From the IMG/VR virus record IMGVR_UViG_3300010396_000050, positions 1 to 56,786 of that record: DNA of 56,786 bases, one strand, 5' to 3'. This document shows, in pieces, positions 474 to 56,786 of this stretch. A program made the translations under genes and the position numbers. The notes below the pieces were generated by a model. The model was not told the origin of the DNA. It was given only the letters and a program-made list of their open reading frames with translations, and made no database searches. Within the stretch, counting starts at the first letter, position 1; each line of letters starts with the position of its first letter. Source of the DNA: a virus.

Positions 474-1949
474 CTAGGCACTCCAGAGTTTGCGTGATGC
501 TGCGAGCGCGAGCCGCGTCAACGCCATGCTTGTCGTATCGACCTGGTCATCGTGGTCACCGTGAGGGAAGGCCTGATGCTCCAGAAGCCAGTCTTCTCGC
601 CAGTCTGCGTTCTCAGGGATATGCGCCCGGCCACCTTCTACGATAGCGGTCACCCCATCTGCTCGAGCCGTCTTCGATTGCGTTCCGTCGATCTTGAAGG
701 CCACGACCGGGAGGGCAGGAAGCTTCTCGTCCTTGGTGTAATAGGGGAGTTTCCACGTCTGGATCGCCGATTGCCCGCTCGCCTTGTCTTCGACGACGAG
801 CGCGATCTTGAGCCCCGGAAACAATCGAGACGCCCACGCATAGGCCGTATGTCCAAGTCGGATCAAATCGGGGAAGGACACACGTTCACGCCAGACGCGA
901 ACGAGATACAGGTTCCCGTCTCCGTCTGCGCCCCAGAGCGCGAAGACGGAATAGTCGTTCTCCACGCCCTCTTTGAAGGCTGAGTCGACGTAGAGCTCCG
1001 CCTTGACGATCTTGGGCAAATCGCGGTACGACTGCCACCACGAACGCTTGAACATCCCGCCTTCTTGGCGAACGGGCTTCTGCTGATACTGTGCCGAATA
1101 TGCCTGTGATCCCAGTTCAACTTTCTTCTCGGTGATTTCCTTGGCGCCGTACCGCTCGGGGTCGAGGAGTTCACCTGGAATGTTCCGGGGGTCCGTCCAT
1201 CCGATACCGGTGACCTGTGTCGTGGGCTCGTACTCCATCGGCAAGTTGAGGTGCTCATAGCCTTGCTCGATGACATTGCCGGCAAGATCGTTAACGTGGA
1301 GACGCTGCTGAATCACGATTTTGGGACTGGTCTTCGGATCGTTGAGGCGAGATGGCATCGTCTCATTCCACCAGCGCACCGTTTCCGCAAGAGCCTTCGG
1401 GCTATGCGCGTCTTTCGCGTCGTGGGGGTCGTCCACGATCAGCAAATCGCCCCGCTTCCCCGTCACGCCTGATCCCGTCCCGAGCGAGATGCGATGTCCC
1501 GTCTGATCGTTCTCGTAACGTGTCTTTACATTTTGATCTGTTGTCATAGCAAACCGATCGCCCCACCGCTCTTGATACCAATCCGACGCGATGACTCGCC
1601 GGGAACGTACGGCGTCCCGCATGGCGAGATCGCTATCGTGTGAGGTCGTCAGGAAGCGGAAAGACGGGTGGTCGATCCAGAGCCACGCCGGGAAAAGAAC
1701 AGATACCAAGGTGGACTTAAGAAAACCCGGCGGAAGCGTAATAACAAGACGCTTGATGTCCCCCTCGGCAACCGCTTGCAGATGGTCGCAGATCGCATCA
1801 ACGTAGAAGCCGGGGATGAGATCGCGTCCTGGCTCAACCTCTGGCCATGCCTGGCGAACAAAATTGCGAAGCTGGCGTTCCGCCTTGAGGGTGCGAATCA
1901 CGTCGAGATCGAGCAACTCGCCGTATGTCGGCTGGACAGCGGCGAGCAT
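474..1949 (-). CDS. terL: Terminase large subunit
   Basis: This is the ATP-driven DNA-packaging motor with a headful or end-cutting nuclease. The protein has 491 residues. The ATPase domain shows a P-loop-like PPGFLKST (about 73-80) and a Walker B DLLIVDDP (168-175). The RNase H-like nuclease domain has candidate metal ligands in YVDSAF (about 320-325), VVEDKASG (385-392) and HDDQVD (466-471). The ATG overlaps the TerS stop by one base, and the stop is followed at once by the portal start, so the three are translationally coupled. The P-loop lacks the classical GxxxxGKS glycine pattern, as in several phage terminases of this type. Confidence 0.93.
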   Translation of the reverse strand: MLAAVQPTYGELLDLDVIRTLKAERQLRNFVRQAWPEVEPGRDLIPGFYVDAICDHLQAVAEGDIKRLVITLPPGFLKSTLVSVLFPAWLWIDHPSFRFLTTSHDSDLAMRDAVRSRRVIASDWYQERWGDRFAMTTDQNVKTRYENDQTGHRISLGTGSGVTGKRGDLLIVDDPHDAKDAHSPKALAETVRWWNETMPSRLNDPKTSPKIVIQQRLHVNDLAGNVIEQGYEHLNLPMEYEPTTQVTGIGWTDPRNIPGELLDPERYGAKEITEKKVELGSQAYSAQYQQKPVRQEGGMFKRSWWQSYRDLPKIVKAELYVDSAFKEGVENDYSVFALWGADGDGNLYLVRVWRERVSFPDLIRLGHTAYAWASRLFPGLKIALVVEDKASGQSAIQTWKLPYYTKDEKLPALPVVAFKIDGTQSKTARADGVTAIVEGGRAHIPENADWREDWLLEHQAFPHGDHDDQVDTTSMALTRLALAASRKLWSA

Positions 1950-18711: not shown

Positions 18712-18740
18712 ATCATATGTTCTAAAATGAAGTCTGACAA
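18712..18740 (-). promoter_or_regulatory. Leftward promoter with shared operator AGAACATATGATCT
   Basis: Minus strand: TTGTCA (18740-18735), 17-base spacer, TATGAT (18717-18712). The -10 lies inside a 14-bp near-palindrome, AGATCATATGTTCT on the plus strand at 18710-18723. The exact inverted copy covers the -10 of the promoter at 20286-20314, so one regulator probably controls both. Confidence 0.7.
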
Positions 18741-18783
18741 GTCGTTTTCCTTATTGACATCATGTCACCGAAGGGAAGTCGGA

Positions 18784-20013
18784 ATGGCCAAGCAGACGAA
18801 ACTCACGCCGGGACGCTATCAGGACCGCGACCCGCTGACCGGGAGACCGATCGAGTCCGGGATCACAGCGATCGTCTCCGATGCGTTGGGCGTGACGTAT
18901 CAGGCGCGCTGGTCGTGGACGGGACCGGACGGCAAGCGGCACCAGGAAGCGGAGACCTTCAAAACGCTGGACGCGGCGGAAGAGACGTTGTTGGAGAACA
19001 AGCTGAAGATCAAACGCGGCATCTACGTCCCGAACAACAAGATCACGATGCAGGAATACTACGACCAGTGGTACAAGCGGCTCTCGATCTCCAAGTGGCG
19101 AACGTCGACGGCGTTTCGCGTCCGGTCGACGTGGGAGCATCACTTCAAGGATTCCGTCGGCGGTGTCCCGTTGACGAAGATGAACCGGTCACTCTGCCAG
19201 CGCGAAGCAGACCGACTCATGAACCTGAAGAATCCTCGTGACGCGGCTAAGCCGCTCGCCGAGCAACGCCCGCTCTACGCGCCGGGAACGATCCGGCTCT
19301 TCCTCACGGTGCTCACAGGCGTGCTGGAGGGTGCGTTCCGTGAGGGGATCATCGACCGCAACCCAGCGCTCCGATTAGAGATCCCGAAGGACCGGACGAA
19401 GACGAAAGCCGTCTGGACGGTGGCGCAGGCGAAGACGTTCCTGGCGAAGACGGCGGACGATCCGTTTCACGTCCTCTGGTGGTTCATGCTCACGACGGGA
19501 TGCAGGGTCGGGGAAGCCGCGGCACTGAGTTGGTCTGCCGTCGACCTCGACGCCGGACGCGTGACGTTCCGCGCCACCCGTCGCCGGAAAGCGGATGGCG
19601 GCTGGGAGATCGCCGCCGGCACGAAGACGTCAGACGAGGATCAGACAATCCCGCTCGTACCCGAGATGGTGACGCTCTTCGCCGAATTGCGGCGTGACCA
19701 ACGATCAAAGCCCGTCGTCGATCTTGATGGACTCGTGTTTCCTACCAAGACGGGCGCGCCGATGGGAGAGCGTGTCGTCGCGCACGCGTTGGACCGCTGC
19801 ATCCTGACTGCTGGCGTCCCCCGAATCACGCCACACGGGATGCGACACACGACGTCGATGTTGCTCCGGGCGCTCAAGGTGCCCGATAGCGTGATCAAGG
19901 ATGTGCTGCGGCACAAGTCGATCGAGACGACCGTCGACATCTATATGCAGTCGGACGAGGAACTGCTCCGCGAAGCCGTCACCCGGCTGGAGCAGGCGTA
20001 CGGGAGTCGGTAG
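18784..20013 (+). CDS. int: Tyrosine-type site-specific integrase
   Basis: A 409-residue recombinase that integrates and excises the phage genome. Arm-binding N-terminal domain (about 25-85, YQARWSWTGPDGKRHQEAET), SAM-like core-binding domain (about 88-200), catalytic domain after 210. Active-site residues visible: R241 in TGCRVGEAAAL, K281 in GTKTSDEDQ, H351/R354 in HGMRHTT, H377 in LRHKS, nucleophile Y387 in DIYMQ. The start MAKQTKL follows GAAGGGAAG. Repeats just downstream look like arm-type sites of attP. Confidence 0.95.
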   Translation: MAKQTKLTPGRYQDRDPLTGRPIESGITAIVSDALGVTYQARWSWTGPDGKRHQEAETFKTLDAAEETLLENKLKIKRGIYVPNNKITMQEYYDQWYKRLSISKWRTSTAFRVRSTWEHHFKDSVGGVPLTKMNRSLCQREADRLMNLKNPRDAAKPLAEQRPLYAPGTIRLFLTVLTGVLEGAFREGIIDRNPALRLEIPKDRTKTKAVWTVAQAKTFLAKTADDPFHVLWWFMLTTGCRVGEAAALSWSAVDLDAGRVTFRATRRRKADGGWEIAAGTKTSDEDQTIPLVPEMVTLFAELRRDQRSKPVVDLDGLVFPTKTGAPMGERVVAHALDRCILTAGVPRITPHGMRHTTSMLLRALKVPDSVIKDVLRHKSIETTVDIYMQSDEELLREAVTRLEQAYGSR

Positions 20014-20399: not shown

Positions 20400-20484
20400 C
20401 CCTTCATCCCACTGAGCCCCAGACCCGCATCCGGGGCTCAGGACCAGAGCGATCCATACCCTAACGAGATCAACGGCGACCAAC

Positions 20485-20523
20485 ACACAAAGGCCGGTGG
20501 ATGTTCTCCACCGGCCTTTGTGT
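20485..20523. terminator. Strong hairpin ending the Ro/Y RNA transcript
   Basis: 17-bp perfect stem, ACACAAAGGCCGGTGGA at 20485-20501 with its complement at 20507-20523, and a five-base loop. On the minus strand it is followed by CCTTTGTGTGTTGG. It separates the leftward Ro/Y RNA unit from the rightward small RNA. Confidence 0.68.
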
Positions 20524-20550
20524 CTGCGAGATATGGAGCGAGACGAGCGG

Positions 20551-20603
20551 CATCACGTTGCCGTGATGTGGCGGTTTGCGCGCCGCCGTTGGGGTGTGAC
20601 CCC
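20551..20603 (-). other. Run of three hairpins between the third motif copy and the terminator
   Basis: On the minus strand: GGGG/CCCC (20591-20603), GGCGG/CCGCC (20570-20587), and CATCACG-GCAA-CGTGATG with a GNRA-type loop (20551-20568). They follow the third copy of the GGGTTGA motif. This may be the structured end of the Y RNA precursor or a further Y-like RNA lacking a tRNA-like module. Confidence 0.45.
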
Positions 20604-20607
20604 TGGA

Positions 20608-20859
20608 GCAGGAACTCGAACTCATCAACCCGGCAGAAGAAGTCTCGTGTGACGCTGGATACGGAAGTGAGACGGGGGTTTACGCGCTCTGCCATTGAGC
20701 TACATCCACCGAAGCGGATGACGGGATTCGAACCCGCAACCACGTGCTTAGCAGGCAATAACCCGAACTCGTCAACCCAGCGATTGATTCGCGAGTATGT
20801 CGGATGCGTGTGTGGCACGGGGGGATTTGTGTCAAGCAATAACCCCAAGCCTTCAACCC
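20608..20859 (-). repeat. Three copies of a 24-nt GGGTTGA...GTT motif
   Basis: Minus-strand copies at 20836-20859, 20755-20778 and 20608-20631 share GGGTTGA, a central G(G/A)(C/G)TT(G/C)G and GTTATTGC or GTTCCTGC at the end. The middle copy is the 5' strand of the Y RNA stem. The upstream copy can pair with AATCCCC and GCC at 20814-20832 to form a simple hairpin. Repetition at this locus suggests a protein-binding strand, perhaps for Ro. Confidence 0.6.
20644..20795 (-). ncRNA. yrlA: YrlA-like Y RNA with permuted tRNA-like module
   Basis: A noncoding RNA partner for Ro. In RNA order the minus strand gives: stem strand CGCUGG (20782-20777), GACG, GGGUU; T arm with loop UUCGAAU (stem GCGGG/CCCGU); acceptor strand CAUCCGC, tetraloop UUCG (20713-20710), acceptor strand GUGGAUG; UA; D arm GCUCAAUGGCAGAGC (20700-20686); then AACCC, CGUC, CCAGCG closing the stem. 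CUCG/CGAG extends it to 20795/20644. The T arm preceding the D arm with a capped acceptor stem is the fold of bacterial YrlA tRNA mimics. It lies directly downstream of the Ro gene. Confidence 0.8.
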
Positions 20860-20868
20860 GACACGTCC

Positions 20869-20874
20869 ATTATA
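20869..20874 (-). promoter_or_regulatory. TATAAT element overlapping the Ro stop codon
   Basis: Minus-strand GGTATAATGG: the TAA of this hexamer is the Ro stop codon. It would start RNA near 20863, just before the first GGGTTGA motif. No good -35 is visible, so this is weak alone. The same GGTATAAT precedes the tRNA-like cluster at 28.6 kb, also immediately after a stop codon. Confidence 0.45.
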
Positions 20875-22438
20875 CCTGACCGCTCAGGAAAAGGGCGAGC
20901 GTGCGCGGGACCGACGCGTCCATGCCTACAAGGTCCATCTGGCGCGGGTCGCTCGGATCCGCAATTGAAATCTCGTTCGTGGCCATCGCGAGCACCGCGT
21001 GCCGGAACGCCGGGCGCGTCGCCTGAATCTCCGTGATCCGGTGCAACCCGTAGCGACTTGGCCACGTCTCGCTGTCGGTGATACTCACGACCGCCGAAAC
21101 CTCAGGATCGCTCATCGCCGCCGTGAGCGGCAGCGAACAGTCGGTGCCGCCTCCCTGAATGCGGCCAAGTGCTTGTCGAAGCTCGTCATAGCCCTCACCG
21201 CGAACCTCCAGGTGGTACGCGCGGTTCTCGTACGCCATGAACGTCGCATTCGGAAACTGGTACGCGAACACGAGCGCTAGGGAGGTTTCTGCGTCGACAC
21301 AGGTCAGATGCGTGCCGGATGCGTTGCCGTATGTCATGCTCCCCGATACGTCAAGCGCGATGAGGGGCGTCTGGTCCGGATAGATTTCCAGCCCTGTGAA
21401 CGCCTCCCCGAATCCTTCCGCCAACGCGGTCGAGATGCGACTGTTCGGCGTCCACGTCAACGAACCCTTGATGCCACGCCCGGCATCGTAGACCGAGCGA
21501 GCGAGCAGAAATTCGAACGGATGACAGACTTTCGTCGCCCCGTGAATCTTGCGAACGATGAGGTCTACCGAATGCTCGTCATCCATCCCGAGGGATGATA
21601 GCTTGCCAAGATTGCGCAGGAGCGCGCGACCCGGCATGTCCGGCAGCAAGGCGCGCCAGACGGCTTCGTGCCCGAGGAGTGGCCCCGGTACCATCTCGCG
21701 CGGGAGTCGCGCCGACGTGATCGCTTCTGCCGCTTGCTCCGGGGTGATGTCATCGCGTCGCAGTGCGGAATAGCCGACGAACAACCGGGACGCGTGGCTG
21801 TCGGTGAGCAAATCCGCCTCGAACGTCGTCCGCTTGTCCGGATGAGCGATCCAGTCGAAGATCAACGCATGGTCCGAGGATGGCGCCGTCGGACGTGCAA
21901 GGCGCAGCGCATCCCGGAGGGACCACCCGTCGCGCTGATCGTACTTGACTGCCTGGAGCGCGAGAACGTCCGGTGTGCGCATGGTGAACCATCGACTCAC
22001 GGCACGGCGGAACGTCCGATTGCTCTTGCGATCCGCGAAGCGATACCCAAGCCAGTGCAGCAGGTCAGTCCCGATCCGGCACACCTCCGCGACCGCCTCC
22101 ACCGCCTCCCGCTTGACCGCGAGATCAGCACTGCGCGTGAGTGCCGCGAGGACGTAGATTGCCGGGTCAATGCGGAGCGCGAGATTGCCACGCGAGACCT
22201 CGATCACCATATCGAGCGCCGCCCGTGGTTGCTCGTGAATGACGCGCTGAATGGTCTCGTCAGCCCCCTTTGTCACGTCGTAGCCGGTGGCGTAGAACGT
22301 GCCGGTCGATCCCAGGATTAGGAATCGGCGCAGGTGCGTGAGCGGATCAACGCGATAGACGTCGCCTCCCTCATTGCTGAGGACCGTTCCGTTCGCGCGT
22401 GCATTGGCCTGTCGAAGAAGAATAGCGTTCTGGCTCAT
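20870..22438 (-). CDS. rsr: Ro60-like TROVE/vWA RNA-binding protein
   Basis: A 522-residue Ro homologue. The TROVE domain is a ring of HEAT-like helices (about 25-345; LTHLRRFLILGSTGTFYATG, then VIEVSRGNLALRIDPAIYVL, GLEALLPDMPGRALLRNLGKL-like segment near 260-280) that binds misfolded RNA ends in its hole and Y RNA outside. The vWA domain has a complete MIDAS: DVSGSM (363-368), T432 in GGGTDCS, D455 in SITDSE. GGAGCGATGA lies ahead of the ATG. In bacteria Ro works with Y RNA and exonucleases in RNA decay and rRNA maturation. Length matches the family. Confidence 0.93.
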   Translation of the reverse strand: MSQNAILLRQANARANGTVLSNEGGDVYRVDPLTHLRRFLILGSTGTFYATGYDVTKGADETIQRVIHEQPRAALDMVIEVSRGNLALRIDPAIYVLAALTRSADLAVKREAVEAVAEVCRIGTDLLHWLGYRFADRKSNRTFRRAVSRWFTMRTPDVLALQAVKYDQRDGWSLRDALRLARPTAPSSDHALIFDWIAHPDKRTTFEADLLTDSHASRLFVGYSALRRDDITPEQAAEAITSARLPREMVPGPLLGHEAVWRALLPDMPGRALLRNLGKLSSLGMDDEHSVDLIVRKIHGATKVCHPFEFLLARSVYDAGRGIKGSLTWTPNSRISTALAEGFGEAFTGLEIYPDQTPLIALDVSGSMTYGNASGTHLTCVDAETSLALVFAYQFPNATFMAYENRAYHLEVRGEGYDELRQALGRIQGGGTDCSLPLTAAMSDPEVSAVVSITDSETWPSRYGLHRITEIQATRPAFRHAVLAMATNEISIADPSDPRQMDLVGMDASVPRTLALFLSGQV

Positions 22439-22500
22439 TCATCGCTCCATTCATAAAGGACGTGAAGTCTACCTGCCGGGCGCTTGTTATGTCGAATGAT

Positions 22501-22821
22501 TCACGCCGCCTCCCCTTCCTGCCGCATGCCGCGACGCTTGAGCGCAAACCTGCCAAGGTCCGTCATCGCGTAATACCGCACCGTGATCGTCTTGCCGTCG
22601 TAGGACGGTGTGGAGATCGAGCGGTGGACCTCGATCATGCCGGTATCCCGCAGTCGCCAGAGGGCGTGCTGGACGGTCGGAATGTCGAGCGTGAGGCCGA
22701 ACAGCAGATCGTGCTCCGCGTGCGCCTGGTAGATGCTGAACGCCGTCGCCTCGCCAAGGGAGTTGATCGTGGCGAGGACGATGACGGCGATGTCGTCCGG
22801 GTGTCCGATGTCGGCGATCAT
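22501..22821 (-). CDS. PadR-like winged-helix regulator
   Basis: A 106-residue protein. Residues about 17-95 (VLATINSLGEATAFSIYQAH...TLDIPTVQHALWRLRDTGMIEVHRS...YYAMTDLGRFAL) carry the winged helix of PadR-type repressors: helix, recognition helix (PTVQHALWRLRDTGMI), wing, and Y-x-M-T-x-x-G. It is immediately upstream of Ro in the same transcript (62-base gap), so it may regulate the Ro/RtcB unit. Confidence 0.72.
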   Translation of the reverse strand: MIADIGHPDDIAVIVLATINSLGEATAFSIYQAHAEHDLLFGLTLDIPTVQHALWRLRDTGMIEVHRSISTPSYDGKTITVRYYAMTDLGRFALKRRGMRQEGEAA

Positions 22822-23180
22822 TTCAGACGCACCCCATTACGGCGAGCATGAAGCATGATGGCGGAAAACGACGCGAACTCAGCGAAGATCATCGTTCGTT
22901 TCGCCTGCCAATTGGACTCGGTTCGCTCGTTGATTCGCTCCTCGACCTGTCCGTCCGGGAGCACGATGACGGTGACAAGGGCATCCGGCGGAACTGACCC
23001 CAAAGAGGCTGATCCAAGCACCATCCATGTCCCATCATGATCTGGCGTTGCAACGCTGCCGAAATATGGGTAAGTGGAGACGATCTGAGCCATGGCGTCA
23101 TACGACTCAATGGACACATCCTTCCTCACGATAAGGAATGCCCAATCATCGTGGCGCGAAATCACGTAGTCTTCGCTCAT
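22818..23180 (-). CDS. Hypothetical protein
   Basis: A 120-residue protein starting MSEDYVISRHDDWAFLIVRK. The start at 23180 overlaps the upstream stop by four bases. Strands in the first half, helical C-terminus (SFSAIMLHARRNG). It overlaps the PadR-like gene by four bases. No family recognised. Confidence 0.6.
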   Translation of the reverse strand: MSEDYVISRHDDWAFLIVRKDVSIESYDAMAQIVSTYPYFGSVATPDHDGTWMVLGSASLGSVPPDALVTVIVLPDGQVEERINERTESNWQAKRTMIFAEFASFSAIMLHARRNGVRLK

Positions 23181-23278
23181 GCCGCTTCGTCCTCCCACGT
23201 CTCGGCGATTGCATCCGCCAGCCAGTCGAGCCAGTCCGGATCGTCGGAGGGCTTGGGCGGGGCGTGCTCGTCAGTCAT
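23177..23278 (-). CDS. 33-residue acidic peptide
   Basis: A tiny gene: MTDEHAPPKPSDDPDWLDWL followed by ADAIAETWEDEAA. The start overlaps the preceding gene's end and the stop overlaps the next ATG (ATGA), which supports real translation. Amphipathic, W-rich and acidic. It could be a protein-interaction peptide. Role unknown. Confidence 0.5.
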   Translation of the reverse strand: MTDEHAPPKPSDDPDWLDWLADAIAETWEDEAA

Positions 23279-23501
23279 CGACGTACTCCTTCAGGACGAT
23301 CGTTGCGAGGTAGAGGAACTTGTCTCCATCGTGGGCCAGTGATTCGCTGACGATGCAGAACTCTCCTTGCGGATATTCTTTGGCGATCTCACTGAAGCGC
23401 TCGATCTTCTTGTCGTATAGAGCGTTGGCATTTTGCCCCTGCAACATCACTTGGAGAACGATCTGCTTGACGCGCTGGGTGACAGGTTCGGTCCACATCA
23501 C
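23271..23501 (-). CDS. Small hypothetical protein
   Basis: A 76-residue protein, MMWTEPVTQRVKQIVLQVML, with strands (GEFCIVSESLAHDG, FLYLATIVLKEYV). It overlaps the upstream gene by four bases. Alpha-beta character, family not recognised. Confidence 0.6.
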   Translation of the reverse strand: MMWTEPVTQRVKQIVLQVMLQGQNANALYDKKIERFSEIAKEYPQGEFCIVSESLAHDGDKFLYLATIVLKEYVDD

Positions 23502-23839
23502 TGGTCCTCGTGTGGTGGCGGGGCGGCGGGAAGATGATCGCGAATCACGGCGAGGACCGCGGGCAGTTCGACGAATCGCTTGTTCCCGACATGTTCGGCG
23601 CGCATCGCGAACTCACCCTTGAATACTTTCTCCAGCGCGACGATTAGGTCCCGCTGGGCCGCGAGCGCGACGGGCGTTGACATCTCCTCGTACTGGTGAC
23701 GGTCGATTGGTACGAGCTCGTCCCATATATCGTTGTCACGATCAGGCATGGGGTGACGATCCCACCATTCCCAATTCACGCGGTGCATGATCCGTGCGTA
23801 CTTCTCGCGCTGCTCCGGGGTGAGCGTCATGGTCATCAC
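23498..23839 (-). CDS. Hypothetical protein
   Basis: A 113-residue protein (MMTMTLTPEQREKYARIMHR; EKVFKGEFAMRAEHVGNKRF). W/H-rich N-terminus (VNWEWWDRHPMPD). It directly abuts the preceding gene's stop. No motif indicates function. Confidence 0.55.
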   Translation of the reverse strand: MMTMTLTPEQREKYARIMHRVNWEWWDRHPMPDRDNDIWDELVPIDRHQYEEMSTPVALAAQRDLIVALEKVFKGEFAMRAEHVGNKRFVELPAVLAVIRDHLPAAPPPHEDQ

Positions 23840-24265
23840 CTACCAGTCCCCTTCCGCATACCGGCGCTCTGATCCTAAGTCATCGCCGATCGGGTTGGGG
23901 AACCCATACTTGACCGCGGTTGCTTTGAAAAGCGGAAGTCCATACAGAGCGTAGTCCTCGAAATCCTCGAGCCCGTCTTCAAGTATCCAGTTCCACATCG
24001 CCACTACGTCATACATCATTCCGGCTGAAAGCCCTCGCTGATTCAGTGCCTTGCTAAAGCCGAACGCAACATCCTTCTTGAGTTGTCCCAGGATGTTTTC
24101 GCGGGTGAACGGGACGCAGCTATGCTTGCCGACGAACTCTTCCTTGAGCGTTGCGCCAATCCGGTGTAGGTCAACCTCGGGAACAAAATCCACGAGCCGT
24201 AAAATATCCCGACCGTCCAACGTCTTCGATGTATAGCCCGCGTAAACCTGCTCGAGTGTCTTCAT
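23840..24265 (-). CDS. Hypothetical protein downstream of RtcB
   Basis: A 141-residue protein, MKTLEQVYAGYTSKTLDGRD. Helical, with FSKALNQRGLSAGMMYDVVA and a tail ending ALYGLPLFKATAVKYGFPNP. It follows RtcB after a 55-base gap that can fold a GCCACG-type hairpin. It is not an archease or RtcA by sequence. An RNA-repair accessory role is possible only by position. Confidence 0.55.
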   Translation of the reverse strand: MKTLEQVYAGYTSKTLDGRDILRLVDFVPEVDLHRIGATLKEEFVGKHSCVPFTRENILGQLKKDVAFGFSKALNQRGLSAGMMYDVVAMWNWILEDGLEDFEDYALYGLPLFKATAVKYGFPNPIGDDLGSERRYAEGDW

Positions 24266-24320
24266 CTCTACTCCTCAGTGGTGCGGCCACGAGCCGTGAG
24301 CCCGTGGCGCTGGTGGGTGG

Positions 24321-25523
24321 TTAGTCGTCTTTCGCGCGGCTGTCGCCCTTGACCGTGCGGAGCGGTCGGAGCGTGTGCACGATGTCGATCAGGTCTCTCT
24401 GGCGACCGATCACGGTCGCGATGTCCTTGTAAGCCCCAGGTGCCTCGTCAAGCTGGCCCTTCGTGATCGTCGTGAACGTGGCAGCGTCTTCCAGCTCGAT
24501 GTTCACCAGATCGACGTCGAACGTCTTCTTGGCGACATTGCGCCCCATCTTGCGACCGGCACCATGCGAGCACGATGCGTAGCTGTCGAGGTTCCCCTTG
24601 CCATGCACGATGTAGCTCGTCGATCCCATGCTGCCGGGGATGATGCCGATGCTCGACGCTCCGGCATCCGTCGCACCCTTGCGATGCAACACGATGCCGT
24701 GATCCTCCGGCCCATCGAACTCGGCATAGTTGTGCATGCAATCGAACGTATCGATCCGGTCCACCGGAATCCCGATCGCCGCCTCCAATGCGCGGACCAA
24801 TTGTTCGATCATCCACATCCGGCTCTCACGTGCGAACGCCATCCCCCAGTTCATGTCATGCATGTAGTCATGGGCGGCCTGTTCATCGAAGCTCAGTGAG
24901 GCGAGGTCCTTCGCCACTTTGACGCCCCGCTTCTCGGTCTCTGCAACGGCGAGCGTGTGGTAATAGCGCGCGAGCTGGTTTCCGGTCCCACGCGATCCCG
25001 AGTGCACCATGAGCCAGATAGCGTCTTCCTCGTCCACTTGTGCTTCGAGGAAGTGATTGCCGCCGCCAAGGGTGCCGAGTTGCGCGGGCCCCTTGCGGAG
25101 CATCGTGTCTTGGAGGGCATCCGCGCGGAGCGACATCTCGAAGAGCCAGTGATGCTCCCGCGCCGGATCCGCTGTACGGTGTGCCTCGAATCCGGTCGGG
25201 ATGCGTTCATTCACTTCGCTTGCCCATGCGTCCCAGAAGTGCTGACCCATCCCCGGATCGAAGTCGATGCTCGTGCGAACGGCTTGCATTCCACATCCAA
25301 TGTCAACGCCCACCGCGTTCGGGATGACGACGCCTTCGGTGGGAAAGACGCAGCCGATCGGGACACCGAAGCCGCCGTGTGCGTCGGGCATCAATGCGAC
25401 GTGGTCACTGACTTCTGGGTGGTTCGCGACGTTGATGACTTGTTCGACCGCCATCGCGTCAAGCTCGTAGTCGGGTACCCACATCTTCACAGGGACACGG
25501 GTCTTCGCGCTGAACTCAATCAT
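24321..25523 (-). CDS. rtcB: RtcB-type RNA-splicing/repair ligase
   Basis: A 400-residue GTP/Mn-dependent ligase that joins RNA 2',3'-cyclic phosphate or 3'-phosphate ends to 5'-OH ends. Metal and nucleotide motifs are complete: DAHGGFGVPIGCVF (47-60), VGVDIGCGM (71-79, D74 and C78), GGGNHFLE (153-160), MVHSGSRGTGN (172-182), HNYAEF (264-269), and SCSHGAGRKMGR (317-328) with H320 as the guanylylated nucleophile. AAGGAG stands eight bases before the ATG. Length is normal. It shares the operon with Ro, a pairing known from bacterial RNA-repair loci. Confidence 0.96.
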   Translation of the reverse strand: MIEFSAKTRVPVKMWVPDYELDAMAVEQVINVANHPEVSDHVALMPDAHGGFGVPIGCVFPTEGVVIPNAVGVDIGCGMQAVRTSIDFDPGMGQHFWDAWASEVNERIPTGFEAHRTADPAREHHWLFEMSLRADALQDTMLRKGPAQLGTLGGGNHFLEAQVDEEDAIWLMVHSGSRGTGNQLARYYHTLAVAETEKRGVKVAKDLASLSFDEQAAHDYMHDMNWGMAFARESRMWMIEQLVRALEAAIGIPVDRIDTFDCMHNYAEFDGPEDHGIVLHRKGATDAGASSIGIIPGSMGSTSYIVHGKGNLDSYASCSHGAGRKMGRNVAKKTFDVDLVNIELEDAATFTTITKGQLDEAPGAYKDIATVIGRQRDLIDIVHTLRPLRTVKGDSRAKDD

Positions 25524-25540
25524 TGGTATGTCTCCTTGTG

Positions 25541-25562
25541 GGCCGCCCGTGTGAGCGGCCCG
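25541..25562 (-). promoter_or_regulatory. Hairpin in the rtcB leader
   Basis: GGGCCGC/GCGGCCC stem just ahead of the rtcB ribosome-binding site, with no T-run. A similar GGGC-rich hairpin lies after rtcB at about 24287-24307. These may set mRNA stability or translation of the ligase gene. Confidence 0.35.
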
Positions 25563-25578
25563 TGCTGAATACCAGGCG

Positions 25579-25827
25579 TCAGAACGGAAAACCGTCGTGC
25601 GTCGCGGCAATCTCCGTCGTGAAGATCCCCATCCCTGCGAAGACCTGCTCGCGCGCGTCCTCGGCGCCGCATCGTTGGCAGCGGTCCGGCGTGTCCATCT
25701 CGCTCCAGCAGAGGGCTTCGCGACCGCACCGCTCGCAGCGGTAGTCCGCGCACTCCAGCCAGTCCATATCCACGTCGTCCGCGTAGCCCTGCGTGTCGTC
25801 GTCGTCCATCCATGCGTTCATGCTCAT
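25579..25827 (-). CDS. Small zinc-ribbon protein
   Basis: An 82-residue protein starting MSMNAWMDDDDTQGYADDVD. Acidic N-terminus followed by YRCERCGREALCWSEMDTPD and RCQRCGAEDAREQ, a CxxC...CxxC ribbon. The start at 25827 lies next to the upstream stop. Likely metal-binding and protein- or RNA-interacting. It sits directly before rtcB. Confidence 0.65.
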   Translation of the reverse strand: MSMNAWMDDDDTQGYADDVDMDWLECADYRCERCGREALCWSEMDTPDRCQRCGAEDAREQVFAGMGIFTTEIAATHDGFPF

Positions 25828-28134: not shown

Positions 28135-28258
28135 TGATGGCAACAGGATTCGAACCTGCGGCGATTCGACCATTGGGTATCTGGCCCCCGTCGAAACGCT
28201 AGCCAGTAAGAGACGGGCTCATCCGTCATTCAGCGTTAAACCACTCCGCCAAACCATC
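28135..28258 (-). ncRNA. Irregular tRNA-like element, enlarged between D and T arms
   Basis: Minus strand: 5' acceptor GATGGTT, D arm GCG-GAGUGGUUUAA-CGC, T arm GCAGG-UUCGAAU-CCUGU (28159-28143), 3' acceptor UGCCAUC, flanked by UU/AA that extend the stem. Between the D and T arms are 72 nt, against about 35 in class II tRNAs. These include GACGG-AUGAGC-CCGUC (a 6-nt loop holding GAG) and a CUGGC/GCCAG hairpin capped by UUCG. Canonical arm order, but no proper anticodon arm. It may be a decayed tRNA-Leu, or a tRNA mimic. Confidence 0.5.
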
Positions 28259-28415
28259 AACCACGTTGCCTGAGAACCCAAGGCCTAGCCGGACTGGATA
28301 CCGGCCCGCCGGGAATGCACCCAACGCCTACAACCACGGGAAAGACGTGGACTTCCGTCTTGGTGGTCTCATGTCTGCCGGCGTAGAGACCAACCGCCGC
28401 GTGCCTCGGGCACGG
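28259..28415 (-). other. Structured spacer between tRNA-Thr and the irregular tRNA-like element
   Basis: No gene. The minus-strand transcript can form GTGCC-CGA-GGCAC, GGTCTC/GAGACC, CCACG/CGTGG and GCCGG/CCGGC hairpins. This is probably an extended structured RNA or the processing spacer of the tRNA-like cluster. Confidence 0.4.
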
Positions 28416-28487
28416 AGCCCCTCACAGGAGTCGAACCTGTACCCGGCTGTTTACAAAACAGCTGCTCTGCCTTCGAGCTAGAGGGGC
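28416..28487 (-). tRNA. tRNA-Thr (anticodon UGU)
   Basis: A complete cloverleaf: acceptor GCCCCTC/GAGGGGC (7 bp), TA, D arm GCTC-GAAGGCA-GAGC, anticodon arm GCTGT-TTTGTAA-ACAGC with anticodon TGT, variable CGGGT, T arm ACAGG-TTCGACT-CCTGT, discriminator T. CCA is not encoded (TCCG follows). Its 5' end is only three bases after the second permuted tRNA-like module, so both come from one precursor. Confidence 0.93.
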
Positions 28488-28490
28488 AAA

Positions 28491-28559
28491 GCGGACGGCT
28501 TGCCATTCGCCTACATGGCCCAAGGGCCACGCCCGGATTCGAACCGGGAATCTTCCGCC
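28491..28559 (-). ncRNA. Permuted tRNA-like module 2 (CUUG-capped)
   Basis: RNA order on the minus strand: anticodon-stem strand GCGGA (28558-28554), variable AGAUU, T arm CCCGG-UUCGAAU-CCGGG, acceptor CGUGGCC, tetraloop CUUG (28524-28521), acceptor GGCCAUG, UA, D arm GGC-GAAUGGCAA-GCC, G, anticodon-stem strand UCCGC (28495-28491). Every stem pairs (acceptor 7 bp with one G-U, anticodon stem 5 bp), while the anticodon loop is left open. The fold is a tRNA cut at the anticodon and closed at the acceptor end, as in YrlA RNAs. Confidence 0.82.
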
Positions 28560-28560
28560 T

Positions 28561-28626
28561 GACGGCGCCTGACCGATCGGCCATCCCGCTTTCGCCAGAC
28601 CGGGAGTCGAACCCGGCTACTCCGTC
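28561..28626 (-). ncRNA. Permuted tRNA-like module 1 (GAAA-capped)
   Basis: Immediately upstream of module 2, two bases apart: GACGG (28626-28622), variable AGUAG, T arm CCGGG-UUCGACU-CCCGG, acceptor UCUGGC, tetraloop GAAA (28593-28590), acceptor GCGGGA, UG, D arm GCC-GAUCGGUCA-GGC, G, CCGUC (28565-28561). The anticodon-type stem GACGG/CCGUC is perfect. The six-pair acceptor has one G-G mismatch. A TATAAT (28641-28636) seven bases upstream would start the RNA right at this module. Confidence 0.78.
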
Positions 28627-28635
28627 CTGTGACGA

Positions 28636-28641
28636 TTATAC
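28636..28641 (-). promoter_or_regulatory. TATAAT element for the tRNA-like cluster
   Basis: Minus-strand GCGGTATAATCG, directly after the stop codon of the upstream membrane-protein gene. No consensus -35. Expected RNA start near 28629, at the edge of module 1. It matches the GGTATAAT context found ahead of the Y RNA at 20.9 kb. Confidence 0.5.
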
Positions 28642-55880: not shown

Positions 55881-56786
55881 CTACGCGGCCTGTGCGTCAG
55901 GGGCAGCTTGCTCCGGGTTGATCTCGGCGCTCAGGGGCAGCGGGGCGCTGCTGTAGGTGGCGCTGTTGTCCCCGTACTTGGCGAGGTCTGCCTCGAACTG
56001 CGTGATCTGATCCTCCGTATAGCCGTTCCACCGCAGCGCCGTAATCAGCGGCACGCCGTCGTTGACTTGCTGCGTGATCAGGTCCCAGACGTCATCCTCG
56101 GACGTGTCCTCGACGCTCTCCCACTTGACGCGGATATCGCCAGCCTTGACGTCGTAGCCCTTGAGCCGGAGGCCGTAGCGCTGCACGTCGCCCCAGACGG
56201 AGCCCGCGGCCTTTGCCCGGTCGAGCATTTTCTTGATAAACGGAATCGACGCGAGCGACTGCGCGCGGCCAGACGGGAAGTTGCCGCTCATCTCCAGGTA
56301 ATGCACCGGGATCTTCGAGACGCGGCAGATCGCCTTGTCGAGGTACTCCGTGATCGTCGTGTACTGGGCGATGTTGACGGCGGTGAACTCGGCAATCTTC
56401 GACTCGGGGCTTTCCAGCGTGACGATCTTGCTGACGCCAGTCACGAAGTTGTCGTAGAGCTTCTGCTCGTCGGCGTCCCGTGGTGATTCGACGCCGATCA
56501 GGACGCGCTGAGGAAACGCCATCAGCTCCATTGCAACGAAGAGGTCCATCAGGCTCTTGTTGATCGCGTCCTGCAACGAGAGGATCGAGCGGAGTTCGCT
56601 GACGCCGTAGGCGTTGGTGCGGGCGTTGTTCGCGAAGTGGAAGACCGGCACCGTGTCGTTGATGGGGAGCATCACGGGCCACGATTCGCCGTCCACCAGA
56701 TACGGGACCATGTCGTCGGCGGAGGCCGATGTGCCGGGACTACTGGCCTTGGCGCTGACGTACTTTTCGATCCGGTCGGTGAAGTA
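55881..56786 (-). CDS. Portal protein, C-terminal part (gene crosses the window ends)
   Basis: The continuation of the gene starting at 473: open from base 56786 down to the stop at 55881 (301 residues). Features include YLDKAICRVSKIPVHYLEMS and SGNFPSGRAQSLASIPFIKK (the clip/stem core of SPP1-like portals) and an acidic C-terminal tail. Read with the N-terminal piece it gives a normal-length portal. It ends two bases before the MuF-like gene. Confidence 0.88.
   Translation of the reverse strand, partial: YFTDRIEKYVSAKASSPGTSASADDMVPYLVDGESWPVMLPINDTVPVFHFANNARTNAYGVSELRSILSLQDAINKSLMDLFVAMELMAFPQRVLIGVESPRDADEQKLYDNFVTGVSKIVTLESPESKIAEFTAVNIAQYTTITEYLDKAICRVSKIPVHYLEMSGNFPSGRAQSLASIPFIKKMLDRAKAAGSVWGDVQRYGLRLKGYDVKAGDIRVKWESVEDTSEDDVWDLITQQVNDGVPLITALRWNGYTEDQITQFEADLAKYGDNSATYSSAPLPLSAEINPEQAAPDAQAA

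What the first reader, a model, noticed from the sequence alone, without database searches (positions are those of the whole stretch)
20485..22438. Phage-borne Ro60 protein with its own YrlA-type Y RNA
Seen: a TROVE+vWA protein with an intact MIDAS is followed directly by an RNA whose T arm precedes its D arm, with the acceptor stem closed by UUCG and the 5' and 3' ends pairing as a long stem. Known: bacterial Ro proteins are encoded beside YrlA RNAs that mimic tRNA in this permuted way. Inferred: this phage carries a complete Ro ribonucleoprotein for RNA surveillance or degradation.
Basis: partly seen in the sequence, partly recalled or inferred. Interest (0 to 1): 0.93.

Follow-up and report, generated by a model that had tools for sequence, protein, structure and literature searches.

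The report
Phage Ro60 protein with Y RNAs
A temperate bacterial virus carries its own copy of the ring-shaped RNA-handling protein Ro60 together with two or three small partner "Y" RNAs, one shaped like a rearranged tRNA; this is a real but already recognised kind of system, here in an unusually divergent form with an RNA-repair ligase gene nearby.

Summary
Minus-strand gene 20870-22438 encodes a full-length Ro60/Rsr protein (TROVE + Ro60 vWA, MIDAS residues intact). Downstream lies a YrlA-type Y RNA, refined to 20652-20785: T arm, UUCG-capped acceptor, D arm, closed by a Ro-type two-part helix. A covariance model from 15 Y RNAs of other phages (window excluded) finds it over its full length with 98.9 bits (E 5.9e-25); the next full-length match in the window has 11.9 bits. 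Rfam YrlA matches only the tRNA-like part (38.7 bits, cut-off 69; 0 of 20 named phage loci reach that cut-off either). The order rsr-short Y-YrlA is that of Salmonella. Ro genes occur in 339 of 50,697 phage records, Y RNA matches accompany Ro in 18 of 20 named loci and 63 of 80 metagenomic ones, and phage Y RNAs are in print. Less usual are the divergence (at most 37% identity to 172 relatives) and an RtcB ligase gene 1.9 kb upstream (RtcB in 1 of those 20 and 0 of those 80). Function is inferred, not shown.

The parts
20870..22438 (-). Ro60/Rsr protein, 522 aa: TROVE (HEAT-repeat ring) plus Ro60-type vWA domain with intact MIDAS
   Evidence: Pfam TROVE and vWA_Ro60 over cut-off; phrog_850 RNA-binding protein 4.4e-42; 2nvo 5.8e-65; D363/S365/S367/T432/D455 invariant in 21 of 21
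20797..20864 (-). Y1: short Y-like RNA (YrlB-like) with the Ro-type two-part helix and no tRNA-like part
   Evidence: Model R2 of 15 short phage Y RNAs (window excluded): 20.3 bits, E 0.025 over the window, full length; next window match 14.7 bits, E 0.43. Arms repeat those of Y2: 5' arm 0 of 2000 shuffles as good, 3' arm 23 of 2000. Fold z -1.56, 18 of 200 shuffles
20652..20785 (-). Y2: YrlA-type Y RNA; permuted tRNA-like module (T arm - UUCG-capped acceptor - D arm) on a Ro-type helix
   Evidence: R1 98.9 bits, E 5.9e-25, 1-135/135; Rfam YrlA 38.7 bits; 8 of 8 pairs of helix 1 formed in the window row (read by eye); covariation in the family
20524..20636 (-). Y3 (possible): third Y-like element with the same 5' arm, carrying simple hairpins in place of the tRNA-like module
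   Evidence: 27-nt repeat, 81% identity between the Y3 and Y2 arms, 0 of 2000 shuffles; fold z -2.55, 0 of 200 shuffles. Against: 3' arm similarity reached by 112 of 2000 shuffles, and neither R1 nor R2 finds it
20485..20523 (-). perfect 17-bp hairpin after the array; possible terminator or 3'-end stabiliser (no clear U tract beyond the stem)
   Evidence: inverted repeat I1; z -8.29; the terminator scan, which demands a T run after the stem, listed none in 20400-25700
24321..25610 (-). RtcB-type RNA ligase, same strand, 1.9 kb upstream of the Ro gene
   Evidence: Pfam RtcB 1.5e-97, full profile 1-426

Best explanation
This is a phage-encoded Ro60 (Rsr) ribonucleoprotein locus. SHOWN: a full-length Ro protein with intact metal-site residues, followed on the same strand by a YrlA-type Y RNA with permuted tRNA-like module, with a short Y-like RNA before it (weaker evidence) and a possible third Y RNA after it, then a strong hairpin. 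INFERRED: the two-part helix of each Y RNA docks on the outside of the Ro ring; bound Y RNA gates the ring and tethers it to the host exonuclease PNPase, as in Deinococcus, giving a machine that handles structured or damaged RNA during infection. The tRNA-like module would recruit tRNA-binding or tRNA-modifying proteins, or compete with tRNA-cleaving nucleases; the phage RtcB ligase could reseal RNAs cut by host nucleases. I put the identity of the locus (Ro plus at least the YrlA-type RNA) at about 0.95, the PNPase-tether mechanism at about 0.5, and a functional link with RtcB at about 0.25.
For: Protein families and PDB match; invariant MIDAS residues and a KYxxRxGW stretch shared with Deinococcus Rsr and Ro60; full-length hit to an independent Y RNA model; short Y hit; arm repeats; family covariation: 94.5% of 929 cells paired against 33-45% when slid, 22 of 31 pairs with two-sided change; R1 matches near Ro in 18 of 20 named phage loci (2.5-kb flanks), in 63 of 80 metagenomic viral loci and in 65 of 79 bacterial loci (up to 6-kb flanks), all 55, 146 and 157 on the Ro strand; gene order rsr-yrlB-yrlA as in Salmonella (PMC9879122 passage).
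Against: No expression or binding data. The Rfam match is under the gathering score (38.7 of 69). The Y1 match is weak (E 0.025) and Y3 is found by neither model. In the window row helix 2 breaks 4 of 9 pairs in the family register (read by eye). The window Ro is a long, isolated branch (2.3 changes per column, at most 37% identity), so its RNA specificity may have shifted. RtcB was not found in 19 of 20 named and 80 of 80 metagenomic Ro-bearing viral records (the latter are often fragments), so it is no general partner of phage Ro.
Confidence: 0.8

Rival explanations
1. The tRNA-like stretch is the phage attachment site (attP): a tRNA 3' end used by the integrase encoded nearby (18727-20013), or a decayed tRNA gene, and the Ro gene beside it is a coincidence.
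For: A tyrosine integrase gene ends 0.6 kb away, convergent with the RNA; T arm plus acceptor 3' strand is a usual core of tRNA attB sites (general knowledge); phages carry tRNAs, this one too.
Against: The element also has a D arm in permuted order, a 7-bp acceptor hairpin closed by UUCG, and arms that match other phages' Y RNAs over the full model; the 5' arm recurs beside it without a tRNA part; ARAGORN calls no tRNA there.
Confidence: 0.03
2. The Y RNAs act as decoys: the tRNA-like module soaks up host anticodon nucleases or tRNA-targeting defence toxins, and Ro only stabilises the decoy. RtcB repairs what is cut.
For: The authors of PMC7790460 suggest that the YrlA tRNA-like domain may competitively inhibit an anticodon nuclease (passage); phage RNA repair against host RNases is an established theme (PMC7824862 passage); RtcB and a tRNA gene are in the same phage.
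Against: The tRNA-like module lacks an anticodon loop; the neighbouring Y elements have no tRNA-like part; RtcB rarely accompanies Ro in the viral records examined.
Confidence: 0.2
3. A lysogeny gene cargo: Ro and its Y RNAs benefit the lysogen (survival after UV or starvation) rather than the phage during lysis.
For: The phage has an integrase and HTH regulators; D. radiodurans Rsr contributes to UV survival (PMC7790460 passage); one weak promoter-like match lies just before the Ro gene (22495-22466 (-), 9 of 12), which could let it be expressed on its own, though the shuffles give 1.5 such matches on average.
Against: Many other Ro-bearing phages are of the large cluster C mycobacteriophage type (listed rows), which I recall as lytic; the genes upstream of Ro run on the same strand without a clear break.
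Confidence: 0.2

Closest known systems
Y RNAs of phages and bacteria beside Ro60 (Chen et al. 2014, RNA 20:1715; not held, known here by recall and through citing papers)
   Same: Ro gene with adjacent Y RNAs, one with a permuted tRNA-like module; in print for mycobacteriophages (PMC12282133 passage)
   Different: This Ro is at most 37% identical to the 172 relatives in my tree; its Y RNAs lie downstream of the gene, while 36 of 55 R1 hits in named phages and 127 of 146 in metagenomic viral loci lie upstream (my count)
Salmonella rsr-yrlB-yrlA-rtcB-rtcA RNA repair operon (PMC9879122 passage)
   Same: Same order Ro, short Y, YrlA; an RtcB gene nearby on the same strand
   Different: RtcB here is upstream and separated by several small genes; no RtcA or RtcR match among the proteins that I searched, which are not all ORFs; a possible third Y element
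Deinococcus radiodurans Rsr (2nvo) with its Y RNA and PNPase
   Same: Same protein family by sequence (5.8e-65); mechanism taken from it by analogy
   Different: The phage would rely on a host PNPase; binding not tested
Actinophage 'Ro-like RNA binding protein' loci (e.g. prophiGD43A-5, Cashline, Sixama, LinStu)
   Same: Ro with Y RNAs on one strand, often several and of both kinds
   Different: 30-34% identity to the 20 phage Ro proteins aligned; RtcB in 1 of those 20 genomes

Membership tests
Ro60/Rsr proteins | TROVE domain plus Ro60-type vWA domain over the whole length | tested here: met
   Pfam over cut-off for both; 2nvo match over residues 18-522
Ro60/Rsr proteins | MIDAS metal site in the vWA domain | tested here: met
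   D363, S365, S367, T432, D455 invariant in 21 of 21; naming them MIDAS residues is recalled knowledge
Ro60/Rsr proteins (NCBIfam NF041674 equivalog) | curated equivalog cut-off of 900 bits | tested here: not met
   271 bits, E 1.6e-80, positions 21-530 of 531; I read this as a narrow orthologue cut-off, so I do not claim that equivalog, only the wider family
Ro60/Rsr proteins | binds Y RNA and misfolded or structured RNA | not testable with these tools
   needs protein and RNA
YrlA-type Y RNA | tRNA-like module in permuted order (T arm, acceptor, D arm) | tested here: met
   Rfam YrlA alignment; R1
YrlA-type Y RNA | enclosing helix formed by the RNA's two ends, as in other Y RNAs beside Ro | tested here: met
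   R1 full length; helix 1 changes on both sides in 8 of 8 pairs across 30 sequences; helix 2 of the window forms only 5 of 9 pairs (by eye); actual Ro binding not tested
YrlA-type Y RNA | encoded next to a Ro gene | tested here: met
   starts about 85 bases downstream of the Ro stop codon
Rfam RF02553 YrlA | gathering score 69 | tested here: not met
   38.7 bits; 0 of 20 named phage Ro loci reach it, best 52.1, so the threshold excludes those phage members too
rtcBA RNA repair operon | rtcB, rtcA and rtcR with rsr | tested here: inconclusive
   RtcB present; RtcA and RtcR not seen among the proteins searched, but not every ORF was searched

The most novel reading that the evidence does not exclude
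The phage carries an integrated RNA counter-defence set: a divergent Ro ring with three Y RNAs of different heads (plain loop, tRNA mimic, multi-hairpin), an RtcB ligase, and a separate pair of free-standing permuted tRNA-like modules beside its tRNA-Thr gene (28488-28630), which together shield, sort and repair tRNAs cut by host nucleases. Free-standing tRNA mimics without a Ro helix would be a new kind of phage RNA.
Probability: 0.1. Interest if true: 0.75.

Novelty: new member of a known kind. Interest (0 to 1): 0.4.

Why it matters
It shows that phage Ro-Y RNA loci extend into a very divergent phage, and the survey shows that several Y RNAs per locus are common in phages and bacteria. The compact set here (one Ro, two or three Y RNAs, RtcB, a small genome) would make it practical to test what phages use Ro for, an open question. 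The survey also shows that Rfam's YrlA threshold misses the phage Y RNAs tested and that some phage tRNA calls are really Y RNAs.

Tried and rejected
Free energy as proof: the 310-nt stretch folds no better than shuffles (48 of 100 as good), so I relied on homology and covariation. attP or decayed-tRNA reading: considered and rejected (see rivals). Close relatives: Ro and RtcB as single queries found 0 and 1 locus in viral contigs; TerL found 50, best segments 30-43% identical, so synteny in close kin could not be tested. Host: terminase is 41.5% identical to its best-ranked phage match; I left the host open. RtcB as a general partner of phage Ro: rejected (1 of 20 named, 0 of 80 metagenomic records); near bacterial Ro genes 3 of 79 loci by tblastn (flanks up to 6 kb, many contigs shorter). 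The first tblastn run for RtcB had no positive control; I repeated it with the window included, which was found. Y3 by covariance model: not found. Tree: the window Ro is a long branch placed next to other long rows, not trusted; 7 of 179 loci, all bacterial, were dropped before the tree because my script could not read a clean protein of 400-749 aa.

Limits of the samples: the 20 named loci were picked by me for diversity from 339 records (60 best and 60 spread rows seen). The 80 metagenomic loci are the best 80 of 408, with near-copies among them (e.g. L097/L099, L091/L092, L058/L062). R1 and R2 training rows were picked by a GGTTAT-type motif and by end pairing. Of the 30 rows of A4, 19 are top R1 hits, 10 come from the training set and one is the window, and I set its structure by hand, so the pair counts lean towards the structure; the MAFFT alignment does not use structure, and the slid controls (33-45% paired) show the size of the effect. 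Junctions of two adjacent normal tRNAs give R1 scores of 24-32 bits (L012 5175, L009 5762, L023 10618), so local hits of that size are no proof and some counted hits may be such junctions.
Full report
WHAT THE WINDOW IS. The window is a whole IMG/VR virus record of 56,786 bases. It is a tailed phage: terminase large and small subunits, portal, head morphogenesis, scaffold, major head protein, tape measure, endolysin, primase/helicase and a tyrosine integrase. The portal gene is cut at the right end and the terminase sits at the left end, so the record looks like an almost complete genome opened between them (inference). Its terminase is 41.5% identical to the best-ranked match among 50,697 phage records, so it has no close named relative there.

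THE PROTEIN. The ORF 20870-22438 (-) encodes 522 aa with Pfam TROVE and vWA_Ro60 over their cut-offs, phrog_850 and D. radiodurans Rsr 2nvo as best PDB match, 5.8e-65 over residues 18-522. In an alignment with 20 phage Ro proteins the residues that I take as the MIDAS are invariant. It is 30-34% identical to those and at most 37% to any of 172 relatives in a tree, where it is a long isolated branch. The NCBIfam equivalog for Rsr matches at 271 bits, under its cut-off of 900.

THE YrlA-TYPE RNA. Rfam finds nothing at this locus at its gathering scores, but in a local scan YrlA matches 20680-20745 (-) with 38.7 bits, E 4.5e-7, in the permuted order T arm, acceptor, D arm. Named phages behave alike: YrlA matches at E up to 0.5 occur in the 2.5-kb flanks of Ro in 13 of 20 loci, and none reaches the gathering score (best 52.1). 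I collected Y-like elements from these loci by a shared GGTTAT-type motif and end pairing, aligned 15 tRNA-like ones and built model R1 without the window. R1 finds the window RNA at 20652-20785 with 98.9 bits, E 5.9e-25, over all 135 positions. The other five window matches up to E 10 are one of 30.5 bits, limited to the tRNA-like part, and four of 7.9-12.2 bits. On a MAFFT alignment of 30 such RNAs (the window, 10 from named phages, 10 from metagenomic viral loci, 9 from bacteria) with a structure set by hand, 94.5% of 929 cells of the 31 pairs are paired against 33-45% when the partners are slid; 22 of 31 pairs change on both sides, and none of 500 shuffles reaches any of the five measures. 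Nineteen rows were top R1 hits and ten came from the training set, which favours the structure; the slid control keeps that in view. In the window row all 8 pairs of helix 1 form and helix 2 forms 5 of 9 in the family register (read by eye).

THE ARRAY. The 5' arm of this RNA recurs, three copies in all, downstream of Ro (27 nt). The first is a 68-nt RNA (20797-20864) with no tRNA part: model R2, from 15 short phage Y RNAs without the window, finds it with 20.3 bits, E 0.025, the best of two matches in the window (the other 14.7 bits, E 0.43). Its 5' arm is as similar to that of Y2 in 0 of 2000 shuffles and its 3' arm in 23 of 2000; its fold is unremarkable (z -1.56, 18 of 200). The third (20524-20636) has the 5' arm (0 of 2000), folds better than 200 of 200 shuffles (z -2.55) and carries plain hairpins, but its 3' arm is weakly similar (112 of 2000) and neither model finds it. 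I call it possible. A perfect 17-bp hairpin follows. The order Ro, short Y, YrlA is that of Salmonella rsr-yrlB-yrlA (PMC9879122 passage).

HOW COMMON IT IS. Ro homologues occur in 339 of 50,697 phage records, mostly of Mycobacterium (195) and Streptomyces (115); most of the rows listed are annotated 'Ro-like RNA binding protein'. R1 hits occur in 18 of 20 named phage loci at E up to 0.05 (2.5-kb flanks), and at E up to 0.01 in 63 of 80 IMG/VR loci (the best 80 of 408) and 65 of 79 bacterial loci, with flanks of up to 6 kb; all 55, 146 and 157 hits are on the Ro strand. Twelve of the 20 named loci supplied the training rows, so the fair part of that count is the other eight, of which six have a hit (one of them, L018, only 21.8 bits). 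The two named loci without a hit, L004 and L016, are the large phages of Sinorhizobium and Agrobacterium. Several hits per locus are common, with and without a tRNA part. Some hits among tRNA arrays are junctions of adjacent tRNAs.

RtcB. An RtcB ligase with a full-length Pfam match lies at 24321-25610 on the same strand. RtcB homologues occur in 633 phage records, but among the Ro-bearing viral records tested only in 1 of 20 named (Microbacterium phage Zooman) and 0 of 80 metagenomic ones (the latter may be fragments). Within the flanks of bacterial Ro genes tblastn finds RtcB in 3 of 79 loci. So Ro plus RtcB in one phage is unusual in this sample, and a working link between them here is a guess by analogy with the Salmonella operon.

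PRIOR ART. Chen et al. 2014 (RNA 20:1715) is not held. From recall, it reported likely Y RNAs near Ro60 in more than 250 bacterial and phage species, at least one per species with a tRNA-like domain. PMC12282133 (passages) cites it for mycobacteriophages and proposes Rsr plus Y RNAs in a Listeria phage. PMC9569102 (passages) lists yrlA among ncRNAs of some mycobacteria. PMC7824862 (passages) lists TROVE proteins and RtcB ligases among jumbo-phage RNA repair genes. PMC7790460 (passages) gives the Deinococcus PNPase tether and the suggestion that YrlA may inhibit an anticodon nuclease. The finding is therefore a new, divergent member of a known kind.

MECHANISM. By analogy, the two-part helix of each Y RNA binds the Ro ring, gating it and tethering it to host PNPase for decay of structured RNA; the tRNA-like head recruits tRNA-binding proteins or competes with tRNA nucleases. 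None of this is shown here.

NOTICED ELSEWHERE. At 28488-28630 (-), just before tRNA-Thr, two further permuted tRNA-like modules seem to stand in tandem without a Ro helix, the second clearer than the first (by eye, sequence; R1 30.5 bits for the second). Folding is mixed: z -2.09 (5 of 200 shuffles) for the pair, but z -0.93 (30 of 200) for the second alone and 0.64 (148 of 200) for a stretch that holds most of the first, and the predicted fold of the pair is not the permuted one. ARAGORN calls only tRNA-Thr in the window. Adjacent-tRNA junctions can give such R1 scores, so this is a lead, not a result.

CHANGES AFTER CHECKING. On review against the calls I corrected one statement: the promoter scan did list one weak match just before the Ro gene. 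I also downgraded Y3 from probable to possible.

Noticed in passing
window 28488-28630 (-): Two tandem T arm - tetraloop-capped acceptor (GAAA, CUUG) - D arm modules without a visible Ro helix, just before tRNA-Thr(UGU) 28414-28487, with a TATAAT upstream near 28640 (by eye). R1 gives 30.5 bits to the second, a score that junctions of adjacent tRNAs can also reach; the predicted folds do not clearly support the permuted form.
   Followed up: partly
window 28135-28258 (-): Rfam tRNA match of 29.5 bits stretched over 124 nt, not called by ARAGORN: a tRNA with an odd long insertion or a decayed one.
   Followed up: no
L003 1705-1783, L010 1922-1998, L009 5337-5425: Y RNAs called as tRNAs: the annotated tRNA-Thr of prophiGD43A-5 and tRNA-Arg of Magritte, and an ARAGORN tRNA-Leu in Sixama, overlap full-length R1 matches of 112-126 bits; these three RNAs were in R1's training set, and Rfam YrlA matches them independently.
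   Followed up: partly
L029 12123-12198; L158, L159, L134, L169, L154, L111, L119, L177: R1 matches limited to the tRNA-like part in Ro loci of phages and bacteria; in L029 ARAGORN calls no tRNA there (the others were not checked). Possibly free-standing tRNA-like modules, Y RNAs with a divergent helix, or tRNA junctions.
   Followed up: no
L012 4949-5005: Pistol ribozyme (56.8 bits, over its cut-off) within the tRNA array of Gordonia phage GMA2, between tRNA-Trp and tRNA-Gln.
   Followed up: no
window 55881-56711 (-) and 474-1949 (-): The portal match lacks its N-terminal part at the right end and terminase is at the left end: the record is probably a nearly complete genome opened between the two.
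   Followed up: no
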